DNA from: an uncultured bacterium
GTDB lineage: Bacteria; Verrucomicrobiota; Kiritimatiellia; CAIKKV01; CAITUY01
Reading direction: 5' to 3'
DNA length: 32,920 bases
Assembly: GCA_903958395.1 (NCBI GenBank)
Contig: CAJBSZ010000412.1
Location: 1 to 32,920 of the forward strand
In this document: positions 1,172 through 30,044 of the stretch, one piece after another
Position numbering within the stretch: position 1 is the first letter of the stretch
Layout: every line of letters begins with the position of its first letter
Notes under the pieces: generated by a model
Seen by the model: only the letters and a program-made list of their open reading frames with translations
Database searches by the model: none
Told to the model about the DNA's origin: nothing
Program-made: the position numbers and the translations under genes

Positions 1172-1228
1172 TACGGAAAATATTTTTTCCTAGATATAAT
1201 GAACAACCAATGCTATACAGGTTGTTCA
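1172..1228 (+). promoter_or_regulatory. Promoter with palindromic operator of the LacI-type gene
   Basis: A consensus -10 box TATAAT lies at 1195-1200; a weak -35 (TTACGG or TACGGA) lies near 1171-1177. Directly downstream is a perfect inverted repeat: TGAACAACC at 1200-1208, an 11-bp spacer, and GGTTGTTCA at 1220-1228. The repeat covers the expected transcription start and ends at the second ATG of the gene. This is the geometry of an autorepressed promoter. The spacer and right arm are conserved in front of the paralogue at 30025-30044. Confidence 0.7.
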
Positions 1229-2910
1229 TGAGTAGCGCCGTTTCAATTATGGAGGTTGCAAAGGCCGCCGGAGTATCCAAAACGACGGTCTCACGGGTCA
1301 TCAATGGGAAGCTCGACGGGTTCCGGATTGGACTCACCACACAGGCTCGGGTCCGGAGCATCGCCAGCCAGATGGGATACCAGCCGGATCCAGTCGCCAG
1401 GAATGTCGCGCTGGGGAAGGGTGCCCCGCCGCGGCCGTCGCGTCCTCCGATCTCCTCATCCTCGACTCCAACGGCGGTGGTTGGTAGGCGGCAGATGGGG
1501 ATTGTGCTCGCGGCGGACAGTGCCTCACCCACGCTTGCCCTGCTTCCGGAAATGGAGCCGGTGCTGGCCGCAGCGGACTACCGCCTGGTCATGATCACGG
1601 TCCCTGCCGATCCGGCCGCCGCCAGCCAGCGGGTGAACCAGTTGATTCAGGAAGGCATCATCGGGCTCCTTTGCTGTCCAACCATCTACCAGGCCACGGT
1701 CGCGACGGCGGCAGGGCGATGTCCGGTGATTGTCCTTTGGGCCGGAGCCGCCAAGGCGATGCTGGCGACACTGAACGACCCGATGGCCTCTCAGACTCCA
1801 GCCCCCGCGCCGCCGGCCGCCGCGGCCCCTGCCGCTATGACGCCGCCGCCATCCCCAGTGGCCGCCGCTCCGGCGACCAAGCCGACGCCTATCGCACCGC
1901 CTCCCGTTGTGGCAATTCCCCCAGTCGTGTCTGCCCCGACGCCGGTCGTCCCCAAGATAGCCATCCCGCCGGTCATAATCATCCCAGAACCTTTGACATC
2001 GGATCCCCCGGCAGCAGAGCAACCCGACAACGCAATAACCATCTCTCCTCCAGCATCAGAACCGATTCCGATCATGGAGCCAGTCACCGTGCCAGAGGTC
2101 GTCACACCCGAACAACCACCTGTCGCAACGCCGTCCGCCCCAGATCCGCAGCCCACTCCCGAGCCGGAACCTTTCATCGCGCCGACGGTGGATGTAGCCC
2201 CCGAGCTAATTTCCGAGCCAGAACCCCTGCAATCGCCAGCGCCTGAACCGGAACCCATAACATCACCTGAGCCTACAGCAGCCACTCCCACAACAACCGA
2301 GCAACCCGACAACTCAACAACTATCGTCCCTCCCGCCCCCGAACTCACCCCAATCGAAATGCCGGTCGCCGAGCCGGTGTCCGTTGTCATCGATCCGCCG
2401 CCTGATATTGCAGTGCCAGAGCCTACAGCAACCACTCCCTCAACAACTGAGCAACCCAGCAACTCAACAACCATCTCACCTCCCGTCCCGCCACCAGAGT
2501 CGGAACCAGAAGTGATCCCCGCGGTTGATCCGGAACCTTTCATCGCACCGACGGTCGTCGTAGCCCCCGAGCCGCTACCTGTCATAACAATACCAGCGCC
2601 TGAAGCGGCGCCCATAACATCACCCGAGCCAACAGCAACCATTCCCCCAACAACCGAGCAACCCGACAACTCAACAACCATCTCCCCTCCGACCCCAGAA
2701 CCCGCTCCAATCGAAATGCCAATCGTCGAGCCCGTGGCCGTTGTCCCCGAGCCGCCGCCTGTGATTACAATGCCAGAGCCAACAGCGCCCACTCCCTCAA
2801 CAACTGAGCAACCTAACAACTTAACAACCACCTCTCCTCCCGCTCCCGAGGTTTCCGTCGAAACGGAACCGGATGTTGAGAATGTGGGGGATATGGCTTC
2901 CCGTTCTTGA
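1228..2910 (+). CDS. LacI-type HTH protein with half sensor and Pro-rich repeat tail
   Basis: 560 residues from the ATG at 1228. I prefer this start to the ATG at 1210 because the latter lies inside the operator and an AGG precedes 1228. Residues about 6-27 are a clear LacI-type helix-turn-helix ([20 protein letters not shown]), continued by the hinge-like [16 protein letters not shown]. Residues about 89-184 resemble only the first lobe of a periplasmic-binding-type sensor (MGIVLAAD, then [12 protein letters not shown], then [12 protein letters not shown] and [11 protein letters not shown]). The second lobe is replaced by about 375 residues rich in Pro, Glu, Thr, Ser and Ala with internal repeats. 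LacI proteins normally run to about 330-350 residues with two lobes, so this architecture is unusual. It probably binds DNA; ligand sensing is doubtful. It lies directly upstream of the hsdR remnant, and a paralogue lies at 29131-30024 beside hsdM. Confidence 0.75.
2008..2846 (+). repeat. Five degenerate coding repeats in the Pro-rich tail
   Basis: A unit encoding roughly [20 protein letters not shown] followed by PP recurs five times. The GAG codon of its EQP motif is near 2017, 2299, 2449, 2656 and 2806. Spacings of about 262-282, 150 and 207 bp suggest a long period that contains the unit plus a PEP-rich linker. Both DNA and protein copies have diverged, with the last three closest to one another, which fits past tandem duplication inside the tail. 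Confidence 0.7.
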
Positions 2911-2941
2911 TTTATTTGCCAGAAGGTGTAACTTCCCGCAT

Positions 2942-4118
2942 ATGGCTTGCGACGGCAATAATGAGGTAGCTAAGAAAACGTTGTCGGAACGTGACATCTG
3001 TACGAAATTCGTCACCCCCGCTCTCATCGCCGCTGGGTGGGATTTACAATCTCAACTCCGAGAAGAAGTGACCTTTACGGCCGGTCGGGTGATCGTTCGG
3101 GGCTCCCAAGTTACACGCGGGGAGGCCCGGCGTGCCGATTACGTCCTCTATTACAAGCCCGGTATTCCCATTGCCGTTATTGAGGTTAAGGACAATGTCC
3201 ATTCCGTTGGTGCCGGCATGCAGCAGGCGCTCACCGGGGCCGAGTCCCTCGATGTGCCATTTGCCTTCAGCACCAATGGCGATGCTTTTCTGGAACATGA
3301 TCGCACCCGCCGGGAGGGTGAAGTGGAGCGGGAGATCCCCATGACGGCTTTTCCTTCCCCGGCCGAACTCTGGCATCGTTATTGCGTCGCAAAGGGACTG
3401 AAACCCGCCGAACAGGCTATTATCACCCAGGATTACCACGCGGGCGCTTCTGGCAAGGTGCCCCGCTATTACCAGCAGATCGCCATCAATCGCACCATGG
3501 AGGCTATTGCCAAGGGGCAGGATCGCATCCTTCTCGTCATGGCCACCGGCACCGGCAAGACCTATACCGCCTTCCAGATTATCTGGCGCCTGTGGCGCGC
3601 CCGCGCCAAGAAGCGCATCCTTTTCCTGGCCGATCGCAATATCCTGGTGGATCAGACCCGGATCAACGACTTCAAGCCCTTCGAGTCGGCCATGACCAAA
3701 ATCGTCAACCGCCAGGTGGACAAGTCCTACGAGATCTACCTGGCGCTCTATCAGGCCGTCACCGGCACCGAGGAAGAGCGGAACATCTACAAGCAGTTCT
3801 CCCCGGATTTCTTCGATCTCATCATCGTTGATGAGTGCCACCGTGGCAGTGCCGCCGCCGATTCCGCCTGGCGCGATGTGCTGGAATACTTCAAATCCGC
3901 CACCCAGATCGGTATGACCGCCACCCCGAAGGAAACCCGCGATGTTTCCAATATCGATTATTTTGGCGACCCCCTCTATACTTATTCCCTGCGCCAGGGC
4001 ATCGAAGACGGGTTCCTTGCCCCCTACAAGGTCGTCCGCATCGACATTGATAAGGATCTCCAGGGCTGGCGCCCGCCCGCCGGGAAAAAGGACAAGCATG
4101 GCAAACTTGTCGAGGATC
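2942..4118 (+). pseudogene. hsdR: Type I restriction subunit HsdR, 3'-truncated remnant
   Basis: About 392 codons of an HsdR protein remain, starting at ATG 2942. The N-terminal PD-(D/E)xK nuclease is present (D66, then E81-V-K83), followed by the helicase: motif I ATGTGKT (residues 201-207, Lys206), motif II DECH (297-300) and MTATP (325-329). At about 4112-4122 the HsdR reading ends right after the conserved EDR of the linker before the second helicase half. From there the same frame shows only meaningless Pro/Arg/Ser-rich sequence to a stop at 4522, while frame +1 reads the C-terminus of HsdM. The second RecA domain and the C-terminal M-S contact region are missing. HsdR proteins are usually about 800-1000 residues. 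The product would lack a complete motor and should not support restriction. Confidence 0.85.
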
Positions 4119-4536
4119 GGGTCCCTACACCGGTATCAAGACCAATCTACTTTTCTTCACCAAGGGCGAGCCCACCAAGTCCGTCTGGTATTACGAGCAC
4201 CCGTACCCGCCTGGCGCGAAGAGTTACAACAAAACCAAGCCCATCACCATTGAGGAATTCAAGGCCGAGAAGGACTGGTGGTGCAAGGATACAGCGGCCG
4301 GCCGCGCCCGCCGCAAGGAGACACCTTTTGCCTGGCAGGTCAGCCTGGATGAGATCAAGGCCCGCAACTACAACCTCGATATCAAGAACCCCAACGCTGA
4401 AGCCGCCAAGCATGGGGATCCGGAAGTATTGCTCGCCGATTACAAGAAACTCTTGGATGAGGTGGCCGCCGCCCGTGACGCGTTGCGGATCGAACTGGCC
4501 AAGGCGCTGGGGGAAAGTATGAAGGTTGAAGGATGA
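4119..4536 (+). pseudogene. hsdM: 3' fragment of a type I methylase HsdM
   Basis: In the frame starting at 4126 the sequence reads [20 protein letters not shown], then [15 protein letters not shown], and on to a stop at 4534-4536. This is the familiar C-terminal part of an HsdM N6-adenine methylase, about 137 codons. The S-adenosylmethionine motif and NPPF motif are absent because the 5' part of the gene is gone. There is no start codon or ribosome site of its own. With the hsdR remnant upstream, the simplest reading is one deletion from mid-hsdR to late hsdM (order hsdR-hsdM), leaving a short GGGT-like junction near 4119. A metagenome assembly join is an alternative. The stop is 3 bp before the DUF1016 gene, as in an intact operon. 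Confidence 0.85.
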
Positions 4537-5855: not shown

Positions 5856-7504
5856 ACGCTCGCACTTTACTCGACAACTTCGACCTCATCGCCGACGCCC
5901 CAGGCGGTGTTCCGAAATTGCGCGAACTGATCCTTCAGTTGGCCGTCCGCGGTAAACTCGTGCCGCAGGATTCTAAGGATGTATCAGTGCATGTGACGAG
6001 ATCAACTGACACAACAGAGCCTGGACCGAAGTATGCTATTCCGGCGAAATGGATATGGACCCAACTGGGTTGTGTTATCGATTACAACTACGGGGGAAAG
6101 ACCGCCAGTGAGAGGATTCCGGGTGATGCATGGCTACTTGATCTTGAGGATATCGAAAAGGACACCTCGCTCCTGCTTCAACGCGTCCTTGCGGGTGACC
6201 GGAAATCCACGAGTACCAAATCCCAGTTCAGTGCCGGAGATGTGCTATATGGCAAACTGCGTCCCTACTTGAACAAGGTGCTGGTGGCGAATAGCGATGG
6301 ATATTGCACAACGGAAATTGTGCCCATGAAACCGCTCAAAGGAGTGAATCCGCATTACGTTGTCTGTGTGCTGAAGAGTCGAGATTTCCTGGACTTTACG
6401 GCAGCGCGTTCGTATGGAATGAAGATGCCGCGCTTGGGAACTGAAGATGCAAAACGGGCACCTTTCCCTCTCCCCCCTCTCCCCGAACAGAAACGCATCG
6501 TGGCCAAGGTGGACGAACTGATGAAGCGGTGCGACGAGTTGGAATCCCGGCAAAAAGAACGCGTTGCCCACCACAAGACTCTTGTCGCCTCCTGCCTCAA
6601 CGCCCTTTCAGGTACAAAATGCGATCCCGAATTCATAATTCATCATTCAACATTCAACATTCTCTTCTCTTCTCCCGAATCCATTGCCGAACTCCGCAAA
6701 ACCATTCTCCAGCTCGCTGTCAAAGGGCAGTTGGTTGCACAGGATCCCAGGGATGAGCCAGCTACGGTGCTACTAAGAAAGATCGCGGCAGCGAAGAAGG
6801 ACCTATTCAATGCGGGAGTAATCAAAACATCTGATATCAAGGTTCCCATTGAAAAGATGAAAGGTCGATATTCGGTCCCTGGCAATTGGTGTTGGACAAA
6901 TATTGAGAGTGTTTCAGTGGTTGGTACGGGGAGTACCCCCTCGAGATCGAATTCAGCTTATTTTTCGAGTGGTAGTATTCCATGGGTTACGAGTTCGGCT
7001 ACATCAGCAGAGACAATTGATCATACGGATAATCTGATTACCGAGATTGCCCAAAAGGAAACGAGACTGCGATTGTATCCATCGGGGACGGTGATCGTCG
7101 CCCTTTATGGTCAAGGAAAGACCCGGGGGCAATCATCAACACTGGGAATCGCCGCAACAATTAACCAGGCCTGCGCTGCAATTCAGATCCCTTTTGCCGT
7201 AGATACGATTCGAAGCTATGTGCTGTTGGTATTCAAGAAAATGTACGACGAAATTCGCGAAGAAGCTGCCGGTGGTGCGCAACCGAATTTGAATGTGGCG
7301 AAGATCAAAGCAATGGCGGTGCCACTTCCACCTCTCGCCGAGCAGAAACGCATCGTGGCCAAGGTCCACGAACTCATGGTTATGTGCGATGAACTGGAGG
7401 CCAAGTTGACCCAGTCTAACGCGGTTGCGGAGAAGCTAGCGAAGTCGGTGGTGGGGCGGGTGGGAGAAAATGAAAATTGTTGTTGCCTAATTAGTATCAA
7501 TTGA
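5852..7504 (+). CDS. hsdS: Type I specificity subunit HsdS
   Basis: 550 residues, with two target recognition domains and two conserved spacer regions. Spacer 1 has PLPPLPEQKRIVAKVDELMK followed by RCDELE, near residues 207-232. Spacer 2 repeats it as PLPPLAEQKRIVAKVHELMV, near residues 490-515. The duplicated segment is nearly identical in DNA (6487-6512 and 7340-7365). TRD1 spans about residues 60-200, and TRD2 about 340-490 (GSTPSRSNSAYFSSGSIPWV is typical). The subunit would choose the two half-sites of a bipartite target and recruit HsdM and HsdR. Its own hsdM and hsdR are broken here, so it is either orphaned or served by a methylase elsewhere, possibly the one at 30148. Translation is coupled to the micro-ORF by ATGA. 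The stop lies inside the palindrome at 7494-7507. Confidence 0.93.
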   Translation: MNARTLLDNFDLIADAPGGVPKLRELILQLAVRGKLVPQDSKDVSVHVTRSTDTTEPGPKYAIPAKWIWTQLGCVIDYNYGGKTASERIPGDAWLLDLEDIEKDTSLLLQRVLAGDRKSTSTKSQFSAGDVLYGKLRPYLNKVLVANSDGYCTTEIVPMKPLKGVNPHYVVCVLKSRDFLDFTAARSYGMKMPRLGTEDAKRAPFPLPPLPEQKRIVAKVDELMKRCDELESRQKERVAHHKTLVASCLNALSGTKCDPEFIIHHSTFNILFSSPESIAELRKTILQLAVKGQLVAQDPRDEPATVLLRKIAAAKKDLFNAGVIKTSDIKVPIEKMKGRYSVPGNWCWTNIESVSVVGTGSTPSRSNSAYFSSGSIPWVTSSATSAETIDHTDNLITEIAQKETRLRLYPSGTVIVALYGQGKTRGQSSTLGIAATINQACAAIQIPFAVDTIRSYVLLVFKKMYDEIREEAAGGAQPNLNVAKIKAMAVPLPPLAEQKRIVAKVHELMVMCDELEAKLTQSNAVAEKLAKSVVGRVGENENCCCLISIN

Positions 7505-7507
7505 TAC
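7494..7507. promoter_or_regulatory. 14-bp palindrome, likely TAC operator
   Basis: GTATCAATTGATAC is a perfect palindrome that includes the hsdS stop codon and ends 4 bp before the first TAC gene. TATCAAT/ATTGATA within it could double as a -10 region. Toxin-antitoxin operons are usually autorepressed by their HTH antitoxin at such sites, so this is the expected operator. Confidence 0.6.
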
Positions 7508-7511
7508 CATT

Positions 7512-7871
7512 ATGACCGAAATCAATGAACAACAGCGATGCATACCGGCTGCTTGGCGGCAAGAAGTTGTTCGCATTCTCAGATCAGACGACAAGAAAAA
7601 AATACTCAGTACTCAACAAGCTGATGTTGATTGGGAACACACATTTCCAGATGCTTGGCTCTTCAATCGACCGGAGGCCATGGCTAAAGCTCTGGTCGTC
7701 GATGGTATCGAAGGTCGGCATATTACAGATATGGCTCCTCCATGTGATGCCTATGAGTTTTGGTTCTATTTTGATGATCGGAAGTTGCTCGGTAAAATAG
7801 GCCTTCTTCCAGATGGCCAGGTAATCATCATATTTTCAAGTCACATACCGAGAAAGGGAGATAAATTATGA
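7512..7871 (+). CDS. Putative toxin of a toxin-antitoxin-chaperone system
   Basis: 119 residues, first gene of a three-gene overlapping cassette. I do not recognise its family from motifs. The C-terminal half is a beta-rich segment (AYEFWFYFDDRKLLGKIGLL, then PDGQVIIIFSSHIPRKGDKL) that ends like small RNase toxins of the RelE/HigB/MqsR type, with a basic C-terminus and a conserved-looking SSH. Size, first position, ATGA overlap with an HTH gene and the following secB-like gene make it the toxin by context. The assignment is positional, not by homology. ATG 7512 follows the operator directly, with a weak ribosome site. Confidence 0.6.
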   Translation: MTEINEQQRCIPAAWRQEVVRILRSDDKKKILSTQQADVDWEHTFPDAWLFNRPEAMAKALVVDGIEGRHITDMAPPCDAYEFWFYFDDRKLLGKIGLLPDGQVIIIFSSHIPRKGDKL

Positions 7872-8386
7872 AACCGCCAGTACCTGGATGGGTTCGCATT
7901 ATATCACGCGCGCCTGTTATTATTCCCACCGCGACCGGCGATGGTATCGCTGAAACTATCTACAAGGATGTGCCAGCATGGCAGGATCCAGCAACGGGTG
8001 AGATCTACCTTGATGGTGAAGCCCGTGAGATTCTGGACGGGGTCAAGGCTCGCTACATGGGAATCCTCCTCCCTGGCCAACTACGCGATTTGAGAAATGC
8101 CATCGGAACGACACAAAGGGGAATGGCCGAGTTGCTTCAACTTGGCGAAAAGTCATGGACACGCTGGGAGACAGGAGTGGAACGGCCATCACGGTCCATG
8201 AACCTGCTCTTGTGTTCGGTTTATGACGGGAAAGTGGATGTCAACTATCTCCGATCAATGGCCGATCCCGCCATGCGCTCGCAGTTCAGGCGGTGGGCAC
8301 CCTCGGTGATACTTGATGCGCCTTCCTACAAATATTCCGAATCATACAAGGGGTGGACAAATGCAAGCGATGCCCTCGCCGCTTAA
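7868..8386 (+). CDS. HTH antitoxin with C-terminal extension (TAC antitoxin)
   Basis: 172 residues. The N-terminal 60 are a HigA/MqsA-like dimer or toxin-binding part. Residues about 68-110 form an XRE-type HTH (LPGQLRDLRNAIGTTQRGMA, then ELLQLGEKSWTRWETGVERP). After the DNA-binding domain there is an aromatic-rich tail at about 140-172 (APSYKYSESYKGWTNASDAL). TAC antitoxins such as mycobacterial HigA1 carry a chaperone-addiction (ChAD) tail here that makes them depend on the SecB-like partner. The PxYxxxxSYKG pattern recalls the HigA1 ChAD motif, from memory. It would bind the toxin and repress the operon at 7494-7507. It overlaps the toxin gene (ATGA) and the secB-like gene (26 bp). Confidence 0.8.
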   Translation: MKPPVPGWVRIISRAPVIIPTATGDGIAETIYKDVPAWQDPATGEIYLDGEAREILDGVKARYMGILLPGQLRDLRNAIGTTQRGMAELLQLGEKSWTRWETGVERPSRSMNLLLCSVYDGKVDVNYLRSMADPAMRSQFRRWAPSVILDAPSYKYSESYKGWTNASDALAA

Positions 8387-8840
8387 GTGCCGCGGTTATT
8401 TTGTGACAGAGTTGATGGTCACGGCCAACCCGGAGCACAATGCCAAGAACGCGGCTAAACTTGATTTTAAGGATTTGCAGGTTGAGTCTTCGGCTGAAGC
8501 CGTGCCGAATGAATCCGGCACAAGAATCTGGCGACTATTGCTTCATGTTCGTCAGAATGTTGGTCCGGAGAAAAATGCGCCCTACAATTTCGCTATTGTC
8601 CTACTTGGGCATTTCGAGGTGCATCCCGAATATCCCGACGCTAAGGTCCGACAATTGGTGTCAATTAACGGCAGTTCCATTCTCTACAGTGCAGCACGGC
8701 AGATTTTGCGAGATGCCATGCACAACGGTCCATTCTCCGCGCTTTTGTTGCCTACAGTGAGTTTCAGTGCACCGTCCCAGGACGCAGCACCCTCCAAGGT
8801 CGCCGAAGCCAAAGCGGATTATGGGACCGAGAAATCATGA
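8361..8840 (+). CDS. SecB-like chaperone of the TAC system
   Basis: 159 residues from the ATG at 8361, chosen for the GGGGTGG ribosome site 5 bp upstream and the usual overlap with the antitoxin gene. SecB hallmarks are visible: a first strand ending in LDFKDLQVES, the core PYNFAIVLLGHFEV, then LVSINGSSILYSAARQILRD and the final LLLPTVSF. Canonical SecB is about 155 residues and acts in protein export. Located behind a toxin-antitoxin pair, this copy most likely holds the antitoxin's C-terminal tail and protects it from aggregation and proteolysis. A general export role cannot be excluded. Confidence 0.85.
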   Translation: MQAMPSPLKCRGYFVTELMVTANPEHNAKNAAKLDFKDLQVESSAEAVPNESGTRIWRLLLHVRQNVGPEKNAPYNFAIVLLGHFEVHPEYPDAKVRQLVSINGSSILYSAARQILRDAMHNGPFSALLLPTVSFSAPSQDAAPSKVAEAKADYGTEKS

Positions 8841-9103
8841 GATGGAAGGCCGAGCGTTTACCCAAAAGTGTCGCAGGGACAGGTTAATAGACGCATCGCT
8901 CTCGCCCGATCCGGCCCGGGATGTGTGCACTGGAAAATCACAGGCTGAATTGGAGTCACTTTGCGATTTACTCGCGGTTAAACAGTGGAAAACGGATCCA
9001 CATCCAAAGGCTATTATGAAAAGTTCCTGAGAATTAAGATATTGAAAGTCGGATGCATTATTCAGGGAAGTCTCGCATTCACCTCAGATATCGGATCACT
9101 GTA
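8841..9103. other. Spacer between the TAC and STAND operons
   Basis: Only short frames occur here. A 16-codon frame starts at 8837, overlapping the secB stop, and a frame with QAELESLCDLLAVKQWKTDP ends near 9028. Neither resembles a known family. No strong promoter or terminator is evident, although the ATPase gene must start from this spacer. Confidence 0.4.
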
Positions 9104-12100
9104 ATGACAACCGCCCTCTATAATTGGAAACGCTTTTGGTGCCCCCGAGATGGGAAGATGAACCTTGGCGATGATGGTTATCTTGTCGATCCTGATGAAG
9201 CATTTGGGAGTTACGCGCATCCCGATGTGAAGGCCTACTCGGCAATTAATGAGATTCCTTGCTTGGGACTCCTTGGCGAACCTGGAATAGGTAAATCAAC
9301 AGCAATTCAAGAGGTTATTGAAACGGCACGACAGGCTAATAAGCATGTCATTGCAAAAAATCTGCGCCAGTACAGTAGTGAAGAGCGTCTTATTCGTGAC
9401 GTGTTTGAATCCAAAACCTATCAACAGTGGATTGATGGGGATTCCGCGTTGGAGCTGTTTCTCGACAGTCTTGATGAGAGCCTGCTTCGGATGGGCACTG
9501 TTGTTCCAATCCTATGTGAGCAGTTCCGTAAAGCACCAGTGAATCGCTTACGACTTAGGATAGCCTGTCGCACAGCCGAATGGCCACAAACACTGGAAGA
9601 AGTGATGTTGGAATGCTGGGGGAAGAAGGCTTGTGCCACGTATGAACTTGTCCCATTGCGTCGCAGAGATGTTATTACTGCCGCCGAAACAGAAGGTATC
9701 GATTCGCCTCGATTTCTTGATGAGGTCAAACGGTTGCGGGCACAATCACTTGCAATTAAGCCGGTTACTCTACGGTTTTTGCTGAAAACATACCGTCGAA
9801 ATGCGCGACTTTCGGATACGGAGGCTGACCTCTATCAGCAGGGTTGTCGCCTTTTGTGTGAAGAATCACCTGAACGCAAGGATAGCCGGACGCCTTATCG
9901 GTATGATCCTGATCAAAGGTTTGCCGTCGCCAAGCGCATCGCGGCTGTAACTGTATTTTCAAATAGGTATGCCATATGGACTGGCGCAGATGAAGGCGAT
10001 GTGCCTGATGAGGATGTTGCCATTGGTTTGTTAACTTCTGGCTATGAGGTGGTCAACGGAAAGCAGTTTCCTGTCGACCAATTAGCTGTGCTGGAGGCTT
10101 TAAATACGGGCCTATTTTCTTCCAGGGGGCCTGCACGAATGGGATGGGCCCACCTCACTTACTCTGATTTCCTTGCGGCAACCTACCTGATTGACCGTGG
10201 CACACCCTCCGGACAAATCTTGGCACTAATCACCGACAATCTGTCGGGGCAATGCAAAGTTATACCGCAGTTACACGAGGTCGCGTCTCGAATTGCCACA
10301 GCGAATAAAGAGTTATTCGATGCAATCATCAAACACGACCCCGTTGTGTTGTTGCGAAGCGATGTGGCCACAGCTGGGGAAACTCAGCGATTCGCGCTTG
10401 TTCAAGCACTTCTGGATCTATGCCATAGGGGGGAGTTTCCTTTTCGGTGGCTTGATTACTATGACCGTCTTCGTCATCTACGGCATTCGAGTCTAGGGGA
10501 ACAACTTCGCCCATACCTTGCTGATGCTGGATCCAACATTGATGCCCGGCTCCTGGCGCTTCATATAACGGAATCTTGTGCAGTATCCGGATTAACATCC
10601 GAACTGGTCGGTGTCGCCTTCGACAGTTCAGCGCACTTAGAACTTCGCCTGAATGCTATTGATGCAATCGGTGCGACCGCTGACGATAAAACAAAGGCTA
10701 GATTGATCGAACTGTGCAGTGAGAACTCAGGGCACGCCAGCAGACTCCGTGGGGCCGCTTTAATGGCTCTTTGGCCCAGATATATTTCGGCTGAACAATT
10801 GTTTGAAATTATTGATATTCCCACGACAGATAGCGAAATTAATAGGTACTCCTCATTTATCTCTGGTGGCGTAACTAAAAATCTGGGACCAGAGCACCTG
10901 CCTGCAGCTTTGCGGTGGGTAATCCGTCAAACGTGGAGTCGGCATAGTGGCGATACCGCGTATTGCCGCCTGCTCGATAAAATTCTTTTTTCGGCTTGGG
11001 AGTATATGGATGCGTTGGGTGTGCTTCCGCTGTTTGCTCAGGCAATTCACGCGCGAATTCTGTTGGATTATGGGCATTTAGTGGATTCTTCAAATAAAGA
11101 AAGCAATGCATTTTTAAATGATACAACTAAGCGGCGCAAACTTCTCTGTGAACTTGTTCCGCTAATGAAGGATTCCGAGCGGTACATCATCTGTTTGATT
11201 GAACAGCGTACTGGTATCGCGAAACCCGAAGATCTGCCATGGTTGCTCGATCAATTAGATCGTGAGACGAAATCAGAACTATTCAAGGTGTGGGGTATAC
11301 TTTGCAAGTCGTGCTTCGATCTGCGAAATGTTCACCATGTAGAATTGATCATAGACCTTGCGGCGCATAGTCCGGCGGTGCAAAAAGCCTTTGAATGGTA
11401 TTTGCAGCCAGTAGCACTTGATTCGCCCGAGGCGCAAGCAGGCCATGATGAGTATGAACGTGAGCGAGAGTGGCGCAAAACGGATGTAGAACGCCCTCAG
11501 CTTAATCCTCCTCTCGATGAACGCATCCCCCTGTGGCTGAAGCGGAGCGAGGCTGGGGAGCCGGAGATCTGGTGGCATCTAGTAAGGGAACTCACGCTTA
11601 CACCGGAGAGTCATCACTACCATGATGAGTGGGAGCCCGACATAACTGCTTTCCCGGGATGGCAATCGGCTGATGAGGGAACCAGAGCGAGAATTCTAGA
11701 AGCGGCAAGGCAATACATTCTCCACTGCAAAGATCGGTGGGCTGAGTGGATGGAATCATATGAGATAGAGAATTCTGGCTATCAAGCTCTTCGCCTTCTC
11801 CTCATCTTTGATCAGGTGTTTGTTAACAATCTGGAAGCGTCCAACTGGGTAAACTGGATCGCGGCTTTGTTGGATTACCCAAGGGGGCTCAGCGAAGAAG
11901 AGGCCGAGAAGTATCATCGACCCCTTATCGCGATGATTTATAGACTATTACCTGAATCTTTTGTTGTTGCGCTTAAGGCTGGTGTCCGTCGTGAGGCAGT
12001 CAAAGGCCCTATAACATCGTGCCTTGAGCGAGTTGTTCATATTCTCGACGATAGACTGTGCACGTGTTTACGCGTAATGATTGATGATGGCACCATAAAT

Positions 12101-13390
12101 GAAAATTGCGTTCGAGAGTTGATCGTTTTTTTGGTTGCGCATCGCGATCCGGAAGTTGTCAGCATGGTGTGGACGCAAGTCACTGAACCATTACCTGCCG
12201 ATGGAGATCAGCGCAATCGACTTGTGGCCGCAGTTGCGGCATTAGGTGTTGATGTCAGTGCTGAACACTGGCCGAGACTGTGGAATGTTTTCCAATCTAG
12301 CCCGGACTTCGGGCGTTCAGTTGTGGGTATATGGACTAGTGAACATCGAAGGAATACGGTTTTAACCAAGTTATCTGACAATCAATTGGCCGATTTGTAC
12401 ATTTGGGTGTCTCGTCAATTCCCATATAGCGAGGATCCAAGACAAATGGGATATCACGGAATCGGTGCCCGTGAGCAGATTGCCGATTGGCGTGACCAGT
12501 ACCTTCTGCAGCTTCTCAAAAATCGAGGGACATTTTCGGCATGTGCAGCCCTGGTGTCAGTTCAGGCTGCTTTGCCTGAGGTCACGTGGCTTCGCTTCAC
12601 TGTAGCAGAGGCAATTGCCATAGCCCGGAGAAAGAATTGGCGTCCACCACAACCTCCGGAAGTATTAAGATTAGTCAGTGACCGGGACTCGCGTATCGTT
12701 AGCGATCCTAGCCAACTGGTCACTGTAATCATGGAATCATTGAATAGACTGCAATCCGAATTACATGACAAGACCCCCGCTGTTCGAGATGTCTGGGATC
12801 ACTCTCGAAATGGGAATGCCTGGCAACCCATCGACGAGAATGCCTTGTCTGACTATGTTGCACGTTTTCTGAACAGGGATATATCTGCACGCGGTATTGT
12901 TGTTAACCGTGAAGTGGAGATACGGCGAGGGAATGGGCAGCCAGGAGAAACGACGGATATTCACGTTGATGCCGTTGTTGAAGCCGCTGGCGGTGTACGT
13001 GACGTCATAACCTGCATTATTGAGGCAAAGGGATGCTGGCATGCCGAACTTAAGACAGCCCTGCAGACCCAACTCGTCGACAGGTATTTGCACAAAAATC
13101 AGTGTCGCCAGGGATTGTATCTTGTCGGATGGTTTATGTGTGAGGCTTGGGATAAAGATGACTCGCGAAAGAAGGCCACTCCGGATATGACGATTGAGGA
13201 AGTGCGTTCCTTATTTTCTGCTCAAGCTGCTTTGTTATCAGGCGAGGACTTAACCGTAAAATCGTTCATATTAGATCTATCCTTGGATCCACATACGCCC
13301 AAACAAAAGGTGGTAAATGCCAAAGAATTATCAAACTTTCGACAAAAGCCACGTCGAAATGGAGAAAAACGCAAAAGGAGCAATGCGTGA
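9104..13390 (+). CDS. STAND/NACHT-like ATPase with C-terminal PD-(D/E)xK-like nuclease
   Basis: 1428 residues from ATG 9104; an in-frame ATG at 9053 would add 17 unremarkable residues. Walker A is GEPGIGKST (58-66) and Walker B is LFLDSLDE (118-125). R152-IACRTAEW is the sensor-type strand typical of NACHT/STAND P-loop proteins. A winged-helix-like stretch (about 180-260) is followed by nearly 1000 residues of alpha-helical, probably HEAT-like repeats. The last 150 residues carry VNREVEIRRG, then D1289 (IHVDAV) and E1307-A-K1309 (CIIEAKG), plus a trailing Gln-rich helix, matching a PD-(D/E)xK fold. Known bacterial STAND defence proteins (Avs) sense phage proteins through the repeats and activate an effector that is usually N-terminal; here it is C-terminal. 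It heads a likely operon with the next two genes. Confidence 0.8.
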   Translation: MTTALYNWKRFWCPRDGKMNLGDDGYLVDPDEAFGSYAHPDVKAYSAINEIPCLGLLGEPGIGKSTAIQEVIETARQANKHVIAKNLRQYSSEERLIRDVFESKTYQQWIDGDSALELFLDSLDESLLRMGTVVPILCEQFRKAPVNRLRLRIACRTAEWPQTLEEVMLECWGKKACATYELVPLRRRDVITAAETEGIDSPRFLDEVKRLRAQSLAIKPVTLRFLLKTYRRNARLSDTEADLYQQGCRLLCEESPERKDSRTPYRYDPDQRFAVAKRIAAVTVFSNRYAIWTGADEGDVPDEDVAIGLLTSGYEVVNGKQFPVDQLAVLEALNTGLFSSRGPARMGWAHLTYSDFLAATYLIDRGTPSGQILALITDNLSGQCKVIPQLHEVASRIATANKELFDAIIKHDPVVLLRSDVATAGETQRFALVQALLDLCHRGEFPFRWLDYYDRLRHLRHSSLGEQLRPYLADAGSNIDARLLALHITESCAVSGLTSELVGVAFDSSAHLELRLNAIDAIGATADDKTKARLIELCSENSGHASRLRGAALMALWPRYISAEQLFEIIDIPTTDSEINRYSSFISGGVTKNLGPEHLPAALRWVIRQTWSRHSGDTAYCRLLDKILFSAWEYMDALGVLPLFAQAIHARILLDYGHLVDSSNKESNAFLNDTTKRRKLLCELVPLMKDSERYIICLIEQRTGIAKPEDLPWLLDQLDRETKSELFKVWGILCKSCFDLRNVHHVELIIDLAAHSPAVQKAFEWYLQPVALDSPEAQAGHDEYEREREWRKTDVERPQLNPPLDERIPLWLKRSEAGEPEIWWHLVRELTLTPESHHYHDEWEPDITAFPGWQSADEGTRARILEAARQYILHCKDRWAEWMESYEIENSGYQALRLLLIFDQVFVNNLEASNWVNWIAALLDYPRGLSEEEAEKYHRPLIAMIYRLLPESFVVALKAGVRREAVKGPITSCLERVVHILDDRLCTCLRVMIDDGTINENCVRELIVFLVAHRDPEVVSMVWTQVTEPLPADGDQRNRLVAAVAALGVDVSAEHWPRLWNVFQSSPDFGRSVVGIWTSEHRRNTVLTKLSDNQLADLYIWVSRQFPYSEDPRQMGYHGIGAREQIADWRDQYLLQLLKNRGTFSACAALVSVQAALPEVTWLRFTVAEAIAIARRKNWRPPQPPEVLRLVSDRDSRIVSDPSQLVTVIMESLNRLQSELHDKTPAVRDVWDHSRNGNAWQPIDENALSDYVARFLNRDISARGIVVNREVEIRRGNGQPGETTDIHVDAVVEAAGGVRDVITCIIEAKGCWHAELKTALQTQLVDRYLHKNQCRQGLYLVGWFMCEAWDKDDSRKKATPDMTIEEVRSLFSAQAALLSGEDLTVKSFILDLSLDPHTPKQKVVNAKELSNFRQKPRRNGEKRKRSNA

Positions 13391-13441: not shown

Positions 13442-14299
13442 GTGGCTGAAGACCTAATTGATTTTTCTGTCCCTCTTGGTCCCGTGTCGGTAAGCATCAA
13501 CGGCCTGTTACGAAAACTGTTTGTCCGAAAGGCCCAGAGTCCCTCGGATATCGTTGCGGAAAGGTTTCTGGTGCTATTTGGTGCACACGGTGTGGCTGTG
13601 TCACAAATCCCACGTCTGCTTCCGCAGGTGGGGCTTGATCACCTTAACTCGCGTGATTCACTCTTGGGTGCTCTTACAAACGATGTGCTGGATGAAACTG
13701 GTAAACTTTTTGGAGTGGAGCGGGAGTGGTTGGATGGCGTTAGCGACCGTCTGTATGCATCTCGAACGATCTATAAGCGCCCGGTGAATTTATTCCGCGA
13801 TCTTGCGACCTTGAAGCGCGATGATGACTGGTTCCCTGTGCGTGTTTTGTATTGCACGAACGAGTTGAACGCGGCCGACAACCGTTCACAGCCCCTTGTT
13901 TTGCTATTGGCGGAGCGAATCGCGGAATTCGGTGACGAAGAGATCATGAAGTACCGGGTCTATTCAGACACTTGGGACTGGAGTTATGGCCCAGCTCGGG
14001 TCCAACTCAAGGCAATGGCCCGACTTGCGTTTCTAGCTTTGGATTGCCCCGTACCCTTGTATCGGGTTGGATCCGGCATAATGGACCGCATAATGGACGG
14101 CAAAGCCGTGCCGCGCAGTTATCTGACGGGGTCACCACTGACGAATCCCTCGCTTGAGGATTTTGCTTTAACGGTAGAGGAAAGCGGCCAGGCTAAAGAG
14201 TGTGAAGAGCTTCCGACGGTATTGCAATATATCCGGGAAACGAAACTGGATGAGGCTGCCGCCAGGACGGTGAGCCAACAAAAGGGAGAAGACTCATGA
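13442..14299 (+). CDS. Companion protein of the STAND operon (HTH-like N-terminus)
   Basis: 285 residues starting at GTG 13442, with AGGAG 8 bp upstream. Residues about 35-100 (ERFLVLFGAHGVAVSQIPRL, then DETGKLFGVEREWLDGVSDR) have the spacing of an XRE-like HTH followed by a short wing. I recall this region in uncharacterised proteins near ATPase defence genes, but cannot name a family. Residues about 110-220 form a mixed alpha/beta domain (FPVRVLYCTNELNAADNR and VLLLAERIAEFGDEEIMKYR) that could bind a ligand or the ATPase. It lies 51 bp after the ATPase and overlaps the GIY-YIG gene (ATGA), so it is co-translated. It may be a regulator or a sensor adaptor; this is inference from position. 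Confidence 0.55.
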   Translation: MAEDLIDFSVPLGPVSVSINGLLRKLFVRKAQSPSDIVAERFLVLFGAHGVAVSQIPRLLPQVGLDHLNSRDSLLGALTNDVLDETGKLFGVEREWLDGVSDRLYASRTIYKRPVNLFRDLATLKRDDDWFPVRVLYCTNELNAADNRSQPLVLLLAERIAEFGDEEIMKYRVYSDTWDWSYGPARVQLKAMARLAFLALDCPVPLYRVGSGIMDRIMDGKAVPRSYLTGSPLTNPSLEDFALTVEESGQAKECEELPTVLQYIRETKLDEAAARTVSQQKGEDS

Positions 14300-14994
14300 A
14301 AAGACGCACGCAATTAGTTTGTCAACACTTGGAGAACATTTCCCGGCAGGCGTTGGAGCGGCATCAGGATATTATCGGGCAGTATGCGCGGGGGCGGCAG
14401 GGGATCTATGCGTTGTATCGCCGGGGAAAACTTTACTATGTCGGATTGGCGACCAACCTGCGGAATCGCCTGAAACAGCATCTCAAAGATCGGCATGGCG
14501 GGTCATGGGATCAATTCTCGGTCTACCTGACGGTCGGCGACAATCACCTGCGAGAACTTGAGGCCTTGATGTTGCGGACAGTCAAACCCTCCGGCAACAA
14601 GCAGAAGGGGAAGTTTGCGAAATCGGAGGACCTGCGCCGGAGGTTTCGCCGGGATATCAAGAAATGCGTTCTGTCGGAGATGGATGGCCTGTTTGGCTTT
14701 AGTCGGAAGGAAAAAAAGCCCGAAACTCACGTTGAAGAAGAGCATGATGGGCGCACCCCGGCGCTCGCGGAATATATCTCCACTCCCATGTTGCTACGCG
14801 CCAGATTCAAGGGCGAAATCCTCACCGCCCGTGTTCGTCGTGACGGAACCGTCCGTTTTGACGGCAAAGTCTACACCTCGCCGTCTATGGCCGCCGCACT
14901 CGCGTGCAAGCGCCGAACCTGTAACGGCTGGACCTTCTGGCAGTATGAGCGCGCCCCGGGTGATTGGGTGGCCATTGACAAATTGCGGAGGTAG
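14296..14994 (+). CDS. GIY-YIG nuclease fused to a RAMA-like domain
   Basis: 232 residues. The N-terminal GIY-YIG domain has GIY at 36-38, YYVG at 47-50, the catalytic-type Arg in LRNRLKQH (56/58), Glu in RELEALMLR (87 or 89) and Asn101 in PSGNKQ, so the active site looks complete. A charged linker (about 125-160) leads to a C-terminal domain at about 165-232 with FDGKVYTSPSMAAALACKRR and CNGWTFWQYE, the signature of RAMA-type domains, which are linked to restriction and modification and thought to sense modified DNA. A nuclease with a modification-reading domain fits cleavage of modified phage DNA or damaged DNA. ATGA overlap ties it to the preceding gene. Confidence 0.8.
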   Translation: MKRRTQLVCQHLENISRQALERHQDIIGQYARGRQGIYALYRRGKLYYVGLATNLRNRLKQHLKDRHGGSWDQFSVYLTVGDNHLRELEALMLRTVKPSGNKQKGKFAKSEDLRRRFRRDIKKCVLSEMDGLFGFSRKEKKPETHVEEEHDGRTPALAEYISTPMLLRARFKGEILTARVRRDGTVRFDGKVYTSPSMAAALACKRRTCNGWTFWQYERAPGDWVAIDKLRR

Positions 14995-23073: not shown

Positions 23074-23155
23074 GGTGGACGCCGATCTCCGAGCGGCGTT
23101 CGGCGCAACCGAGAGGTGCCACGTGAATTACCGCGCCCGGAGGTCCCGGTCCACC
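23074..23155. repeat. GC-rich inverted-repeat element (REP/BIME-like)
   Basis: GGTGGAC at 23074-23080 and GTCCACC at 23149-23155 are perfect inverted arms of a compact GC-rich element. Inside, GGACGCCG (23077-23084) pairs with CGGCGTTC (23094-23101), one G-U, around a 9-base loop. It lies between the surface operon and the arsenic operon and may also terminate the former. It differs from the REP copies at 25369-26068. Confidence 0.55.
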
Positions 23156-23194
23156 TGGTCGTGTTTTCGTTTTCGTGAGACGCGAAGCAAGTCA

Positions 23195-23231
23195 TTGACC
23201 TTATGCGCATTATTGCATATTGTACCCTTCA
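23195..23231 (+). promoter_or_regulatory. arsR promoter with operator-like inverted repeat
   Basis: TTGACC at 23195-23200 and TATTGT at 23218-23223 are separated by exactly 17 bp. TATGC (23202-23206) and GCATA (23215-23219) form an inverted repeat over the spacer and -10, as expected for an ArsR site. Transcription would start near 23229-23231, at or next to the ATG, and no Shine-Dalgarno sequence is seen, so the message may be leaderless. Confidence 0.65.
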
Positions 23232-23548
23232 TGAATTACCAACAAGCAAAAGTTCGGGCAGACATTCTGAAGGCGCTGGCCCATCCGGTTCGTGTCCTGA
23301 TTGTCAGCGCGCTCACAGACAGTGACCAGTGCGTGTGTGAGTTGAATAAGCTGGCGGAAATTGATCAGTCGGGCCTGTCGCGGCATCTGGCGAACCTTAA
23401 AAAGGCAGGGATTGTAAGTGACCGTCGTGAGGGGATGAAGGTCTTCTACCATCTGGAAACGCCCTGTATTCTCAAAGCATTCGATTGCGCCGTGGATGTG
23501 ATTAAAGCGGATGTCAAACGAAGGAATGACTATCTCAAGGCGGTGTGA
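23231..23548 (+). CDS. arsR: ArsR-family arsenic-responsive repressor
   Basis: 105 residues, the usual size. A winged helix follows the ArsR pattern: LKALAHPVRVLIVSALTDSD, then C34-V-C36-EL in the position of the As(III)-binding CVC motif, then the recognition helix IDQSGLSRHLANLKKAGIVS and the wing RREGMKVFYHL. It should repress the operon from the site at 23202-23219 and release on As(III) or Sb(III). ATG 23231 is preferred because all upstream in-frame starts lie in the GC-rich repeat and would precede the promoter. It is followed at once by the permease gene. Confidence 0.92.
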   Translation: MNYQQAKVRADILKALAHPVRVLIVSALTDSDQCVCELNKLAEIDQSGLSRHLANLKKAGIVSDRREGMKVFYHLETPCILKAFDCAVDVIKADVKRRNDYLKAV

Positions 23549-23549
23549 T

Positions 23550-24590
23550 GTGAATAACCAGCATGAGGAAGACGTAAGTTTGTTGTTTCTCATCATGAAG
23601 GGAGTCGGGCTGCTCCTGCTTTGGGGAGTGGTGTACTGGAATCTGGAACCCTTTTCAGTCTGGTTGACGTCTGGCGTGCTGGGCTTACCGCCGGATCAGC
23701 ATTTCAGCACCGCTTTGCAGTTCTTTGTGTATGAGACGCCCAAGGTCTTGATGCTGTTGACTTTGATCGTGTTTGTGGTGGGCATCATTCGCTCGTTTTT
23801 CACACCAGAACGGACGCGCCGGATTCTGATGGGTAAACGCGAATCGGTGGGGAATGTCCTGGCCGCTTTACTGGGTATTGTGACGCCATTCTGTTCCTGC
23901 TCGGCCGTGCCGCTCTTTATCGGGTTTGTGACGGCGGGGATTCCTCTGGGGGTGACCCTGTCATTCCTGATTTCGGCGCCCATGGTGAACGAGATAGCTC
24001 TGGTTCTTCTGTTCGGCATGTTCGGCTGGAAGGTGGCCGCCATCTATCTGGGCATGGGCTTGACCATCGCCATGGTGGCGGGCTGGGTTATCGGTCGGTT
24101 GAAGATGGATCGGCATGTCGAGGACTGGGTTTATGCAACCGGTCCCGCGGCGGGGCTTGAAGATGAGAAACTTGATATCACCGCCCGTATCCAGCTCGGG
24201 CGTGATGCCGTGCGGGATATTGTGGGTAAGGTGTGGCTCTATGTCATGATCGGTATTGCCGTGGGGGCCGGGATTCATGGGTATGTGCCGACCAATGCGA
24301 TGGCCTCATTCATGGGAAAAGGGGCTTGGTGGAGCGTTCCGCTATCGGTGGTCATTGGTGTGCCGATGTATTCCAACGCGGCGGGCATCATTCCCATTGT
24401 GCAGGCCTTGCTGGGTAAAGGGGCAGCACTGGGGACGGTGCTGGCGTTCATGATGGCGGTGATTGCACTGTCCCTGCCGGAGGCGATCATTCTGCGCAAA
24501 GTGCTAAAACCCCGATTGCTCGCCGTTTTTTTTGGCGTGGTGGCGATGGGGATCATGGCGGTTGGCTATTTGTTCAATTTTATCATGTAG
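23550..24590 (+). CDS. ArsP-type permease (PF03773 family)
   Basis: 346 residues from GTG 23550, with AAGGCGG about 8 bp upstream; no ATG is closer than 23595. About eight to ten membrane helices are visible. The family motif TPFCSCSAVPLF is present with C115 and C117, and the second half has the matching GVPMYSNAAGIIPI. Members of this family include ArsP, which exports trivalent organoarsenicals such as methylarsenite. With ArsM at the end of the operon, export of methylated arsenic is the natural role; other permeases of the family have unknown substrates. Its start is 1 bp after the arsR stop. Confidence 0.85.
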   Translation: MNNQHEEDVSLLFLIMKGVGLLLLWGVVYWNLEPFSVWLTSGVLGLPPDQHFSTALQFFVYETPKVLMLLTLIVFVVGIIRSFFTPERTRRILMGKRESVGNVLAALLGIVTPFCSCSAVPLFIGFVTAGIPLGVTLSFLISAPMVNEIALVLLFGMFGWKVAAIYLGMGLTIAMVAGWVIGRLKMDRHVEDWVYATGPAAGLEDEKLDITARIQLGRDAVRDIVGKVWLYVMIGIAVGAGIHGYVPTNAMASFMGKGAWWSVPLSVVIGVPMYSNAAGIIPIVQALLGKGAALGTVLAFMMAVIALSLPEAIILRKVLKPRLLAVFFGVVAMGIMAVGYLFNFIM

Positions 24591-27672: not shown

Positions 27673-28524
27673 ATGACAGATAAAAAACACAAAGTTAGAG
27701 AGTCGGTGCGAAAGGGATATGCAGCTATAGCCAAGGGCAGGGGATCATGTTGTGGCCCGTCCTCGACTTGCTGCGGGACAAAGGCGTCTCATGAAGTCGC
27801 CAAGAGCGTCGGTTACTCGGATGCCGACCTGGCAACCCTTCCAGAGGGTGCCAACATGGGACTTTCGTGCGGGAACCCAGGGGCAATCGCTGCGCTTAAA
27901 CCGGGCGAGGTAGTGCTGGATCTCGGCAGCGGAGGAGGCTTTGACGTATTTCTTGTGGCGCAACAAGTGGGGGCCAAAGGGCGGGCGATTGGTGTAGACA
28001 TGACCCCGGAAATGCTCGGGAAAGCCCGCTCAAATGCCGAGTTGTTTAAAAAACAGACGAAGTTGGGCAACGTTGAGTTCCGGCTGGGCGAGATCGAGCA
28101 CCTGCCTGTGGCAGATGCCAGCGTGGATGTGGTTATTTCAAACTGCGTAATCAACCTCTCCCCCGACAAGCCTCAAGTTTGGCGTGAAATATCCCGTATT
28201 CTCAAGCCCGGCGGACGGGTGGCGGTTTCAGATTTGGCTTTGCTCAAGCGGCTTCCAAGGAAGATTCTGGTGTCCATTGAGGCCTTGGTGGGTTGTGTTG
28301 CTGGTGCAGTACTGGTGGATGAGACCCGGGCCATGGCGAAAGCGGCTGGCCTGGCGGCGATCACGTTAACACCGAAGCCTGGGTATGTGGATAATATGGT
28401 GGATTGGAACGATCCGCTTTATCGGGGCATCCTCAAACGCCTTCCAAAAGGAGCGAAACTGAGCCATTATGTTGCGAGCATCAATGTCGAGGCACGCAAA
28501 CCAGTCAGGGGTAAGAAACGATGA
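27673..28524 (+). CDS. arsM: Arsenite S-adenosylmethionine methyltransferase
   Basis: 283 residues, ATG 27673 with GGAGG upstream. The N-terminus has the usual Cys-rich SCCGPSSTCCG. The class I methyltransferase core has VLDLGSGGGFDVFLVAQQVG (SAM-binding) and VDMTPEML. Three conserved arsenic-binding cysteines are present: C66 (GLSCGNP), C158 (ISNCVINLSPD) and C208 (GCVAGA). It methylates As(III) to methyl- and dimethylarsenicals using thiols. As last gene of the operon it pairs with the ArsP-type permease. No arsC, arsB or acr3 is present in this cluster. Confidence 0.95.
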   Translation: MTDKKHKVRESVRKGYAAIAKGRGSCCGPSSTCCGTKASHEVAKSVGYSDADLATLPEGANMGLSCGNPGAIAALKPGEVVLDLGSGGGFDVFLVAQQVGAKGRAIGVDMTPEMLGKARSNAELFKKQTKLGNVEFRLGEIEHLPVADASVDVVISNCVINLSPDKPQVWREISRILKPGGRVAVSDLALLKRLPRKILVSIEALVGCVAGAVLVDETRAMAKAAGLAAITLTPKPGYVDNMVDWNDPLYRGILKRLPKGAKLSHYVASINVEARKPVRGKKR

Positions 28525-30024: not shown

Positions 30025-30044
30025 GCGCAACCTGTTTAGCATTG
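30025..30044. repeat. 20-bp direct repeat, promoter-side copy
   Basis: Identical to 29110-29129 and 915 bp away. Read on the minus strand it is CAATGCTAAACAGGTTGCGC, directly before the start codon. The corresponding segment of the first paralogue (1208-1227) differs at only a few positions, so this is a conserved leader/operator element that is also duplicated behind this gene. Confidence 0.85.

What the first reader, a model, noticed from the sequence alone, without database searches (positions are those of the whole stretch)
7494..8840. SecB-dependent toxin-antitoxin-chaperone cassette with an unassigned toxin
Three overlapping genes, a perfect operator palindrome and a SecB-like third gene fit the TAC class. 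The antitoxin has a C-terminal aromatic tail (PSYKYSESYKG) in the position of the chaperone-addiction sequence. The toxin does not show motifs of a family I can name, so it may be a new toxin type.
Basis: partly seen in the sequence, partly recalled or inferred. Interest (0 to 1): 0.65.

Follow-up and report, generated by a model that had tools for sequence, protein, structure and literature searches.

The report
SecB-dependent toxin–antitoxin module with MqsR-like toxin
This is a three-gene bacterial self-poisoning switch, probably an anti-virus alarm, in which a SecB-type chaperone keeps an unstable antidote alive; its "unknown" toxin turns out to be a very diverged relative of the known RNA-cutting toxin MqsR rather than a new toxin type.

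Summary
At 7494-8840 there is a 14-bp operator palindrome and three overlapping genes: a 119-aa toxin candidate, a 172-aa MqsA-like antitoxin with a disordered aromatic tail ending in LAA, and a SecB homologue. The toxin-antitoxin-chaperone (TAC) reading is supported. Relatives recur across the same phylum (named records: Verrucomicrobia/Lentisphaerae). The operator is near-unique in the genome and conserved upstream of most relatives; relatives without SecB also lack the aromatic, -AA-ending tail.

The "new toxin type" reading is not supported. No Pfam, NCBIfam or PADLOC model matches the toxin. Its AlphaFold model matches E. coli MqsR far better than any other solved structure (Z 10.1, 2.3 Å over 90 of 91 residues). 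Profile comparison links it, through unnamed toxins of proteobacterial MqsA-SecB cassettes, to MqsR. It shares with those toxins a D/E-x-Y ... K ... S-x-H signature, whereas MqsR ends in SFKE. The catalytic Lys56 of MqsR is not kept, and this copy has Leu at the Tyr81 position.

Best reading: a divergent MqsR-type TAC, autoregulated and chaperone-addicted, probably anti-phage (it adjoins a type I restriction locus). Toxicity, RNase activity and SecB dependence are inferred, not shown.

The parts
7494..7507 (.). Perfect 14-bp palindrome GTATCAATTGATAC: operator of the cassette, inferred to be bound by the antitoxin HTH
   Evidence: position, conservation in relatives; near-unique in the genome; operator lies in the spacer of a promoter-like match in L023 and L008; binding not shown
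7512..7871 (+). Toxin candidate, 119 aa, MqsR fold (BECR/RelE superfamily); family signature [DE]79-x-Y81, K95, S109-x-H111
   Evidence: conservation; AF2 pLDDT 84; MqsR 3hi2, Z 10.1; profile link
7868..8386 (+). Antitoxin, 172 aa, MqsA-like without zinc cysteines
   Evidence: (hhalign vs MqsA: probability 98.6, E 6e-16)
7868..8056 (+). Antitoxin N-terminal domain (residues 1-63), inferred toxin-binding domain
   Evidence: relatives L021 and L035 keep only this domain; MqsA-N alone neutralises MqsR in E. coli (PMC2791442)
8072..8224 (+). Antitoxin XRE-type HTH (residues 69-119), inferred operator-binding domain
   Evidence: HTH_31 34.4 bits; HigA2 Z 12.3, MqsA Z 9.7
8270..8383 (+). Antitoxin C-terminal tail (residues 135-172), putative chaperone-addiction (ChAD) region; last three residues LAA resemble a ClpXP degron
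   Evidence: PMC5105189, PMC6377645, PMC8165232, PMC11618068
8361..8840 (+). SecB-like chaperone, 159 aa, the only SecB homologue found in the assembly

Best explanation
A toxin-antitoxin-chaperone operon of the MqsR-MqsA-SecB kind. The first protein is a very divergent MqsR-like RNase toxin. The second binds it through an N-terminal MqsA-like (zinc-less) domain, represses the operon at GTATCAATTGATAC through its HTH, and carries a disordered aromatic tail ending in a ClpXP-type LAA degron. The SecB homologue binds that tail and protects the antitoxin. When the chaperone is diverted (by stress, or by phage capsid or tail proteins as in CmdTAC and HigBAC), the antitoxin is degraded and the toxin blocks translation, probably as abortive phage defence. 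Shown here: anatomy, homology, fold, operator conservation, association of tail and SecB. Inferred: toxicity, RNase activity, tail-SecB binding, degradation, phage trigger.
For: Three-gene order and overlaps conserved in 14-16 relatives in the same class and phylum. SecB passes Pfam; its best plasmid matches are two TAC SecBs next to MqsA genes. Antitoxin is MqsA-like. Toxin has the MqsR fold. Toxin profile links to proteobacterial TAC toxins (score 39.0, shuffles at most 20.2) and those to MqsR (30.2, shuffles at most 21.9). Loci without SecB have tails with 1-2 aromatics and no [AVLI]A end; loci with SecB have 2-9 aromatics (p 0.006) and 11 of 15 end in [AVLI]A (p 0.043). Operator conserved and near-unique; the two relatives whose antitoxin lost the HTH have no operator. 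Defence context: hsdS immediately upstream (stop at 7504), PDDEXK YhcG, HsdM; relatives beside MmeI, DUF1156 methylase, Vsr, and proteobacterial cousins beside DISARM drmA, hsdS and brxL. Published: MqsR-type TAC functions in V. cholerae (PMC5105189) and defends E. coli against T2 (PMC9519451).
Against: Direct profile comparison of this toxin family with MqsR is not significant (2 of 120 shuffles as good). The MqsR catalytic Lys56 has no conserved counterpart and the window copy has Leu93 at the Tyr81 position, so RNase activity of this copy is uncertain. Only three intact SecB-minus loci exist, so the tail-SecB association is small-sample and not corrected for phylogeny. The -AA ending lies inside the secB start in most loci and may partly be forced by the gene overlap. 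No consensus promoter was found at the window operator. No experiment.
Confidence: 0.8

Rival explanations
1. TAC module whose toxin is a genuinely new toxin class that only resembles the MqsR fold and has another target or chemistry.
For: No sequence family match for any of 21 relatives; direct hhalign to MqsR is insignificant; MqsR Lys56 not conserved, S-x-H replaces SFKE, Tyr81 position is Leu in this copy.
Against: Fold match to MqsR stands far above all other BECR toxins; MqsA-type partner; a colinear bridge family links both.
Confidence: 0.12
2. The first protein is not toxic or is a decayed toxin; the locus is a regulator-chaperone pair or a dying cassette.
For: Leu93 replaces the Tyr found in most relatives and essential in MqsR (Y81) (PMC9636575); the neighbouring hsdR-like ORF appears rearranged; some relatives have damaged antitoxins (L010, L021, L035).
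Against: All three frames intact, operator intact, K95, S109 and H111 kept; L003 has the same Leu and an intact pair.
Confidence: 0.08

Closest known systems
MqsR-type TAC / MqsRAC (V. cholerae RC385 TAC, PMC5105189; E. coli C496_10 MqsRAC, PMC9519451; Vibrio/Shewanella/Cupriavidus plasmid cassettes L067-L075 here)
   Same: Gene order toxin, MqsA-family antitoxin with long C-terminal tail, SecB-like chaperone; toxin with D-x-Y, Y-x-K and C-terminal S-x-H; defence-gene neighbours.
   Different: Different phylum; toxin only detectable by profile comparison; antitoxin lacks the zinc cysteines; different operator; SecB only about 23% identical to the Cupriavidus and Thiodictyon SecBs and about 13% to the Vibrio ones.
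E. coli MqsR-MqsA (3hi2, PF15723/PF15731)
   Same: Toxin fold (Z 10.1), toxin-first order, antitoxin domain plan (N-domain plus XRE HTH).
   Different: No SecB and no addiction tail; zinc-binding N-domain; Lys56/Tyr81/SFKE active site not preserved.
M. tuberculosis HigB1-HigA1-SecB(TA) and E. coli HigBAC
   Same: TAC architecture; tail with SecB site and C-terminal ClpX degron; SecB partner.
   Different: HigB-family toxin, HigA-family antitoxin. A HigB-like TAC occurs separately in the same genus (L049, L050).
CmdTAC
   Same: SecB-like third gene; antitoxin ends in LAA and is ClpP-degraded; phage-triggered.
   Different: Toxin is an mRNA ADP-ribosyltransferase; antitoxin unrelated to MqsA.

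Membership tests
TAC (SecB-dependent toxin-antitoxin-chaperone) modules | Three-gene operon toxin-antitoxin-SecB homologue | tested here: met
   SecB 28.9 bits vs cut-off 26
TAC (SecB-dependent toxin-antitoxin-chaperone) modules | Antitoxin with C-terminal, unstructured chaperone-addiction extension | tested here: met
   by sequence and model only: tail 135-172 disordered; aromatic tail tracks presence of SecB
TAC (SecB-dependent toxin-antitoxin-chaperone) modules | SecB binds the tail and is needed to neutralise the toxin | not testable with these tools
   needs rescue and binding assays
MqsR toxin family (PF15723) | Match to the family sequence model | tested here: not met
   no hit for P0001 or any of 21 relatives
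MqsR toxin family (PF15723) | MqsR fold | tested here: met
   AF2 model vs 3hi2 chain D: Z 10.1, 2.3 A, 90 of 91 residues; next best Z 6.6
MqsR toxin family (PF15723) | Catalytic Lys56 and Tyr81 (PMC9636575) | tested here: not met
   by alignment, no structural superposition available: no conserved Lys at the Lys56 region; Leu93 at the Tyr81 position in the window copy, Tyr in most relatives
MqsR toxin family (PF15723) | Homology by profile | tested here: met
   only transitively, A3-A8-A5; the direct A3-A5 comparison is not significant
MqsA antitoxin family | N-terminal domain plus XRE HTH, profile homology | tested here: met
   hhalign probability 98.6, E 6e-16; TIGR03830 E 4e-11 but below its cut-off
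MqsA antitoxin family | Four zinc-binding cysteines (PMC2791442) | tested here: not met
   no CxxC in P0002; some annotated rhizobial MqsA also lack them
CmdTAC | ADP-ribosyltransferase toxin | tested here: not met
   toxin model matches MqsR and other BECR folds, no ADP-ribosyltransferase family hit
HigBAC | HigB-family toxin | tested here: not met
   no HigB family hit; HigB folds at Z about 5 against 10.1 for MqsR

The most novel reading that the evidence does not exclude
Chaperone-addicted MqsR-like toxins of this phylum and of Proteobacteria form their own clade with a rewired active site (invariant K ... S-x-H where MqsR has SFKE, and no Lys56 equivalent). They would cleave RNA with different chemistry or specificity from MqsR and serve as SecB-sensed anti-phage effectors, with side branches that lost SecB, tail, HTH and operator.
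Probability: 0.35. Interest if true: 0.55.

Novelty: new member of a known kind. Interest (0 to 1): 0.36.

Why it matters
It gives a name and testable residues to a toxin family that sequence libraries miss, in this phylum and in proteobacterial MqsA-SecB cassettes whose toxins are annotated only as hypothetical proteins. The family contains natural experiments (SecB lost together with the tail's features; HTH lost together with the operator) that show which part of a TAC depends on which. If the cassettes are anti-phage, as in E. coli, they extend chaperone-sensed defence to another phylum.

Tried and rejected
New toxin class: rejected as best reading after the fold and bridge-profile results. 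HigBAC and CmdTAC membership: no support. Direct hhalign to MqsR: insignificant. Searches of plasmids and phages with the toxin, of IMG/VR viral contigs and of phages with the antitoxin found nothing, so there is no sign of phage carriage. The Pfam MqsR model rang nowhere, control genomes included, so that negative is uninformative; likewise the A8 profile in the phylum. E. coli complete genomes hold no near DNA relative of the Vibrio cassette. Circular contig: no terminal overlap. No consensus promoter at the window operator. The -AA ending as proof of a degron: downgraded, because most copies lie inside the secB start.

Full report
Observation. The window is one whole contig (C412) of a 5.2-Mb assembly. 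At 7512-7871, 7868-8386 and 8361-8840 lie three overlapping plus-strand ORFs of 119, 172 and 159 codons. A perfect palindrome GTATCAATTGATAC occupies 7494-7507, just before the first start codon and overlapping the end of the upstream hsdS ORF (stop at 7504). Two palindromes of at least 14 bp in the window are what chance gives (2.4 expected), but one within the 101 bp upstream of this gene has chance probability 0.0035. The third protein passes the Pfam SecB threshold.

Distribution. Searches with the toxin found matches in 12 of 193 relatives (9-10 convincing), 13 of 387 genomes across the phylum and 15 of 346 of the class; named records behind six of them are Verrucomicrobia, Spartobacteria, Lentisphaerae and a PVC bacterium. 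None was found in plasmid, phage or IMG/VR collections. Nearly every relative is followed by the same antitoxin family, usually then SecB. A scan of 25 genomes finds SecB almost only at these loci or at a separate HigB-like TAC in the same genus; in this genome the cassette's SecB is the only one found.

Operator. The exact 14-mer is within 80 nt upstream of the toxin in the window and nine relatives whose toxins are mostly 30-65% identical, with near-copies in most others. It is the only site with two or fewer mismatches to GGTATCAATTGATACC in this genome, and in the 16 genomes searched almost all hits are at the cassette. In L023 and L008 it sits in the 18-nt spacer of a promoter-like match. 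In L021 and L035 the antitoxin is only about 90 aa, without the HTH, and the operator is absent. Autorepression by the HTH is therefore the natural inference.

Antitoxin. hhalign of six homologues against eleven MqsA sequences gives probability 98.6 and E 6e-16 over residues 29-120, spanning part of the N-terminal domain and the HTH. The zinc cysteines of MqsA are absent, as in some annotated rhizobial MqsA proteins. AlphaFold gives confident N-domain and HTH and a disordered tail from 135; the HTH resembles HigA2 (Z 12.3) and MqsA (Z 9.7). The N-domain fold was not tested separately.

Tail and SecB. Among 15 loci with SecB the tail has 2-9 aromatic residues and 11 end in [AVLI]A; among three loci with intact antitoxin but no SecB the counts are 1-2 and none (p 0.006 and 0.043; not corrected for phylogeny). 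The genomes of those three also lack any detectable SecB. The window tail ends ASDALAA. CmdA also ends in LAA, and its authors say antitoxins of other known TACs do too (PMC11618068); HigA1's ClpX degron is a C-terminal Val-Ala within the ChAD (PMC8165232). However, in about ten of the 15 loci the antitoxin end lies well inside the secB start (20 nt or more of overlap), which may help to fix that ending; of the five with 4 nt of overlap or a start near it, one or two end in AA.

Toxin. No family model matches it or 20 relatives. AlphaFold on seven sequences gives mean pLDDT 84. Foldseek's top two PDB hits are MqsR chains (E 0.06-0.09, so weak alone), and VIA-align gives MqsR Z 10.1, 2.3 Å over 90 of 91 residues, against 6.6 for the next entry. 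Searching with the SecB protein and then with the antitoxin found beside it uncovered proteobacterial plasmid cassettes with annotated MqsA antitoxins, in most cases a SecB gene (some annotated only as a hypothetical third protein, none in Mitsuaria), and a first gene called hypothetical. Their toxins share invariant D-x-Y, K and S-x-H with this family. hhalign: this family vs those toxins E 1e-5, those toxins vs MqsR E 4e-4; 0 of 120 column shuffles reach either score, while the direct comparison is reached by 2 of 120. The Vibrio members begin MVNN and their toxin-antitoxin pair spans 975 nt; the V. cholerae RC385 'MqsRA' TAC shown to work in PMC5105189 was amplified with a primer encoding MVNN over 981 nt, so it is probably of this group (inference).

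Active site. MqsR needs K56 and Y81 (PMC9636575), and Q68 and K96 also matter (PMC2791442). In this family the conserved residues are K95, S109 and H111; by alignment S109 and H111 fall at MqsR S94 and K96. MqsR itself lacks the catalytic histidine of YoeB (PMC2791442), so an invariant His here is a real difference. Position 93, equivalent to Y81, is Tyr in most relatives but Leu in the window and L003. RNase activity is therefore plausible, not shown.

Context and function. Upstream are an HsdR-like ORF, a YhcG-type PDDEXK protein and HsdS; HsdM lies at the far end of the contig, and a large AAA/STAND-like protein follows the cassette. Relatives neighbour MmeI-type enzymes, DUF1156 methylases and Vsr, and proteobacterial cousins neighbour DISARM, hsdS and BREX. 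Since MqsRAC protects E. coli from T2 (PMC9519451), and CmdTAC and HigBAC are triggered by phage capsid or tail proteins (PMC11618068, PMC11980606), abortive defence through diversion of the SecB homologue is the most likely role. This step is inference.

Verdict. A divergent member of the MqsR-type TAC class. The TAC reading stands; the claim of a new toxin type does not. It fails the strict MqsR sequence and catalytic-residue tests, so it is filed as a TAC with an MqsR-like toxin.

Noticed in passing
window 2873-4530: HsdR-like ORF (HSDR_N plus helicase) appears to run, with a frame change near 4170, into a sequence that looks to me like an HsdM C-terminus ([17 protein letters not shown]), while a full HsdM is at 30148-32826: a rearranged or misassembled type I restriction locus.
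   Followed up: partly
window 1210-2910 and 29131-30042 (-): Two paralogous LacI-type HTH proteins with long proline-rich tails flank the two restriction gene blocks.
   Followed up: no
window 9053-13390: 1445-aa AAA/STAND-like NTPase, no PADLOC hit, directly downstream of the cassette; candidate defence protein.
   Followed up: partly
window 14296-14994: GIY-YIG nuclease fused to a RAMA domain, similar to PADLOC candidate PDC-S14.
   Followed up: partly
L021 and L035: Two-gene variants in two genera: toxin plus about 90-aa antitoxin without HTH, no operator, no SecB in the genome.
   Followed up: partly
L049, L050, L055: A separate HigB-like toxin plus HigA-like antitoxin plus SecB cassette in the same genus and elsewhere in the phylum.
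   Followed up: partly
window 7494-7514: The operator ends 4 nt before the toxin ATG (also very close in L002, L004, L015, L034), suggesting leaderless or near-leaderless toxin mRNA; other relatives have a 25-40 nt leader.
   Followed up: no
window 23075-24590 and 27673-28524: ArsR-like regulator, ArsP-like permease and ArsM-like methyltransferase: probable arsenic gene block, judged by eye from the translations.
   Followed up: no
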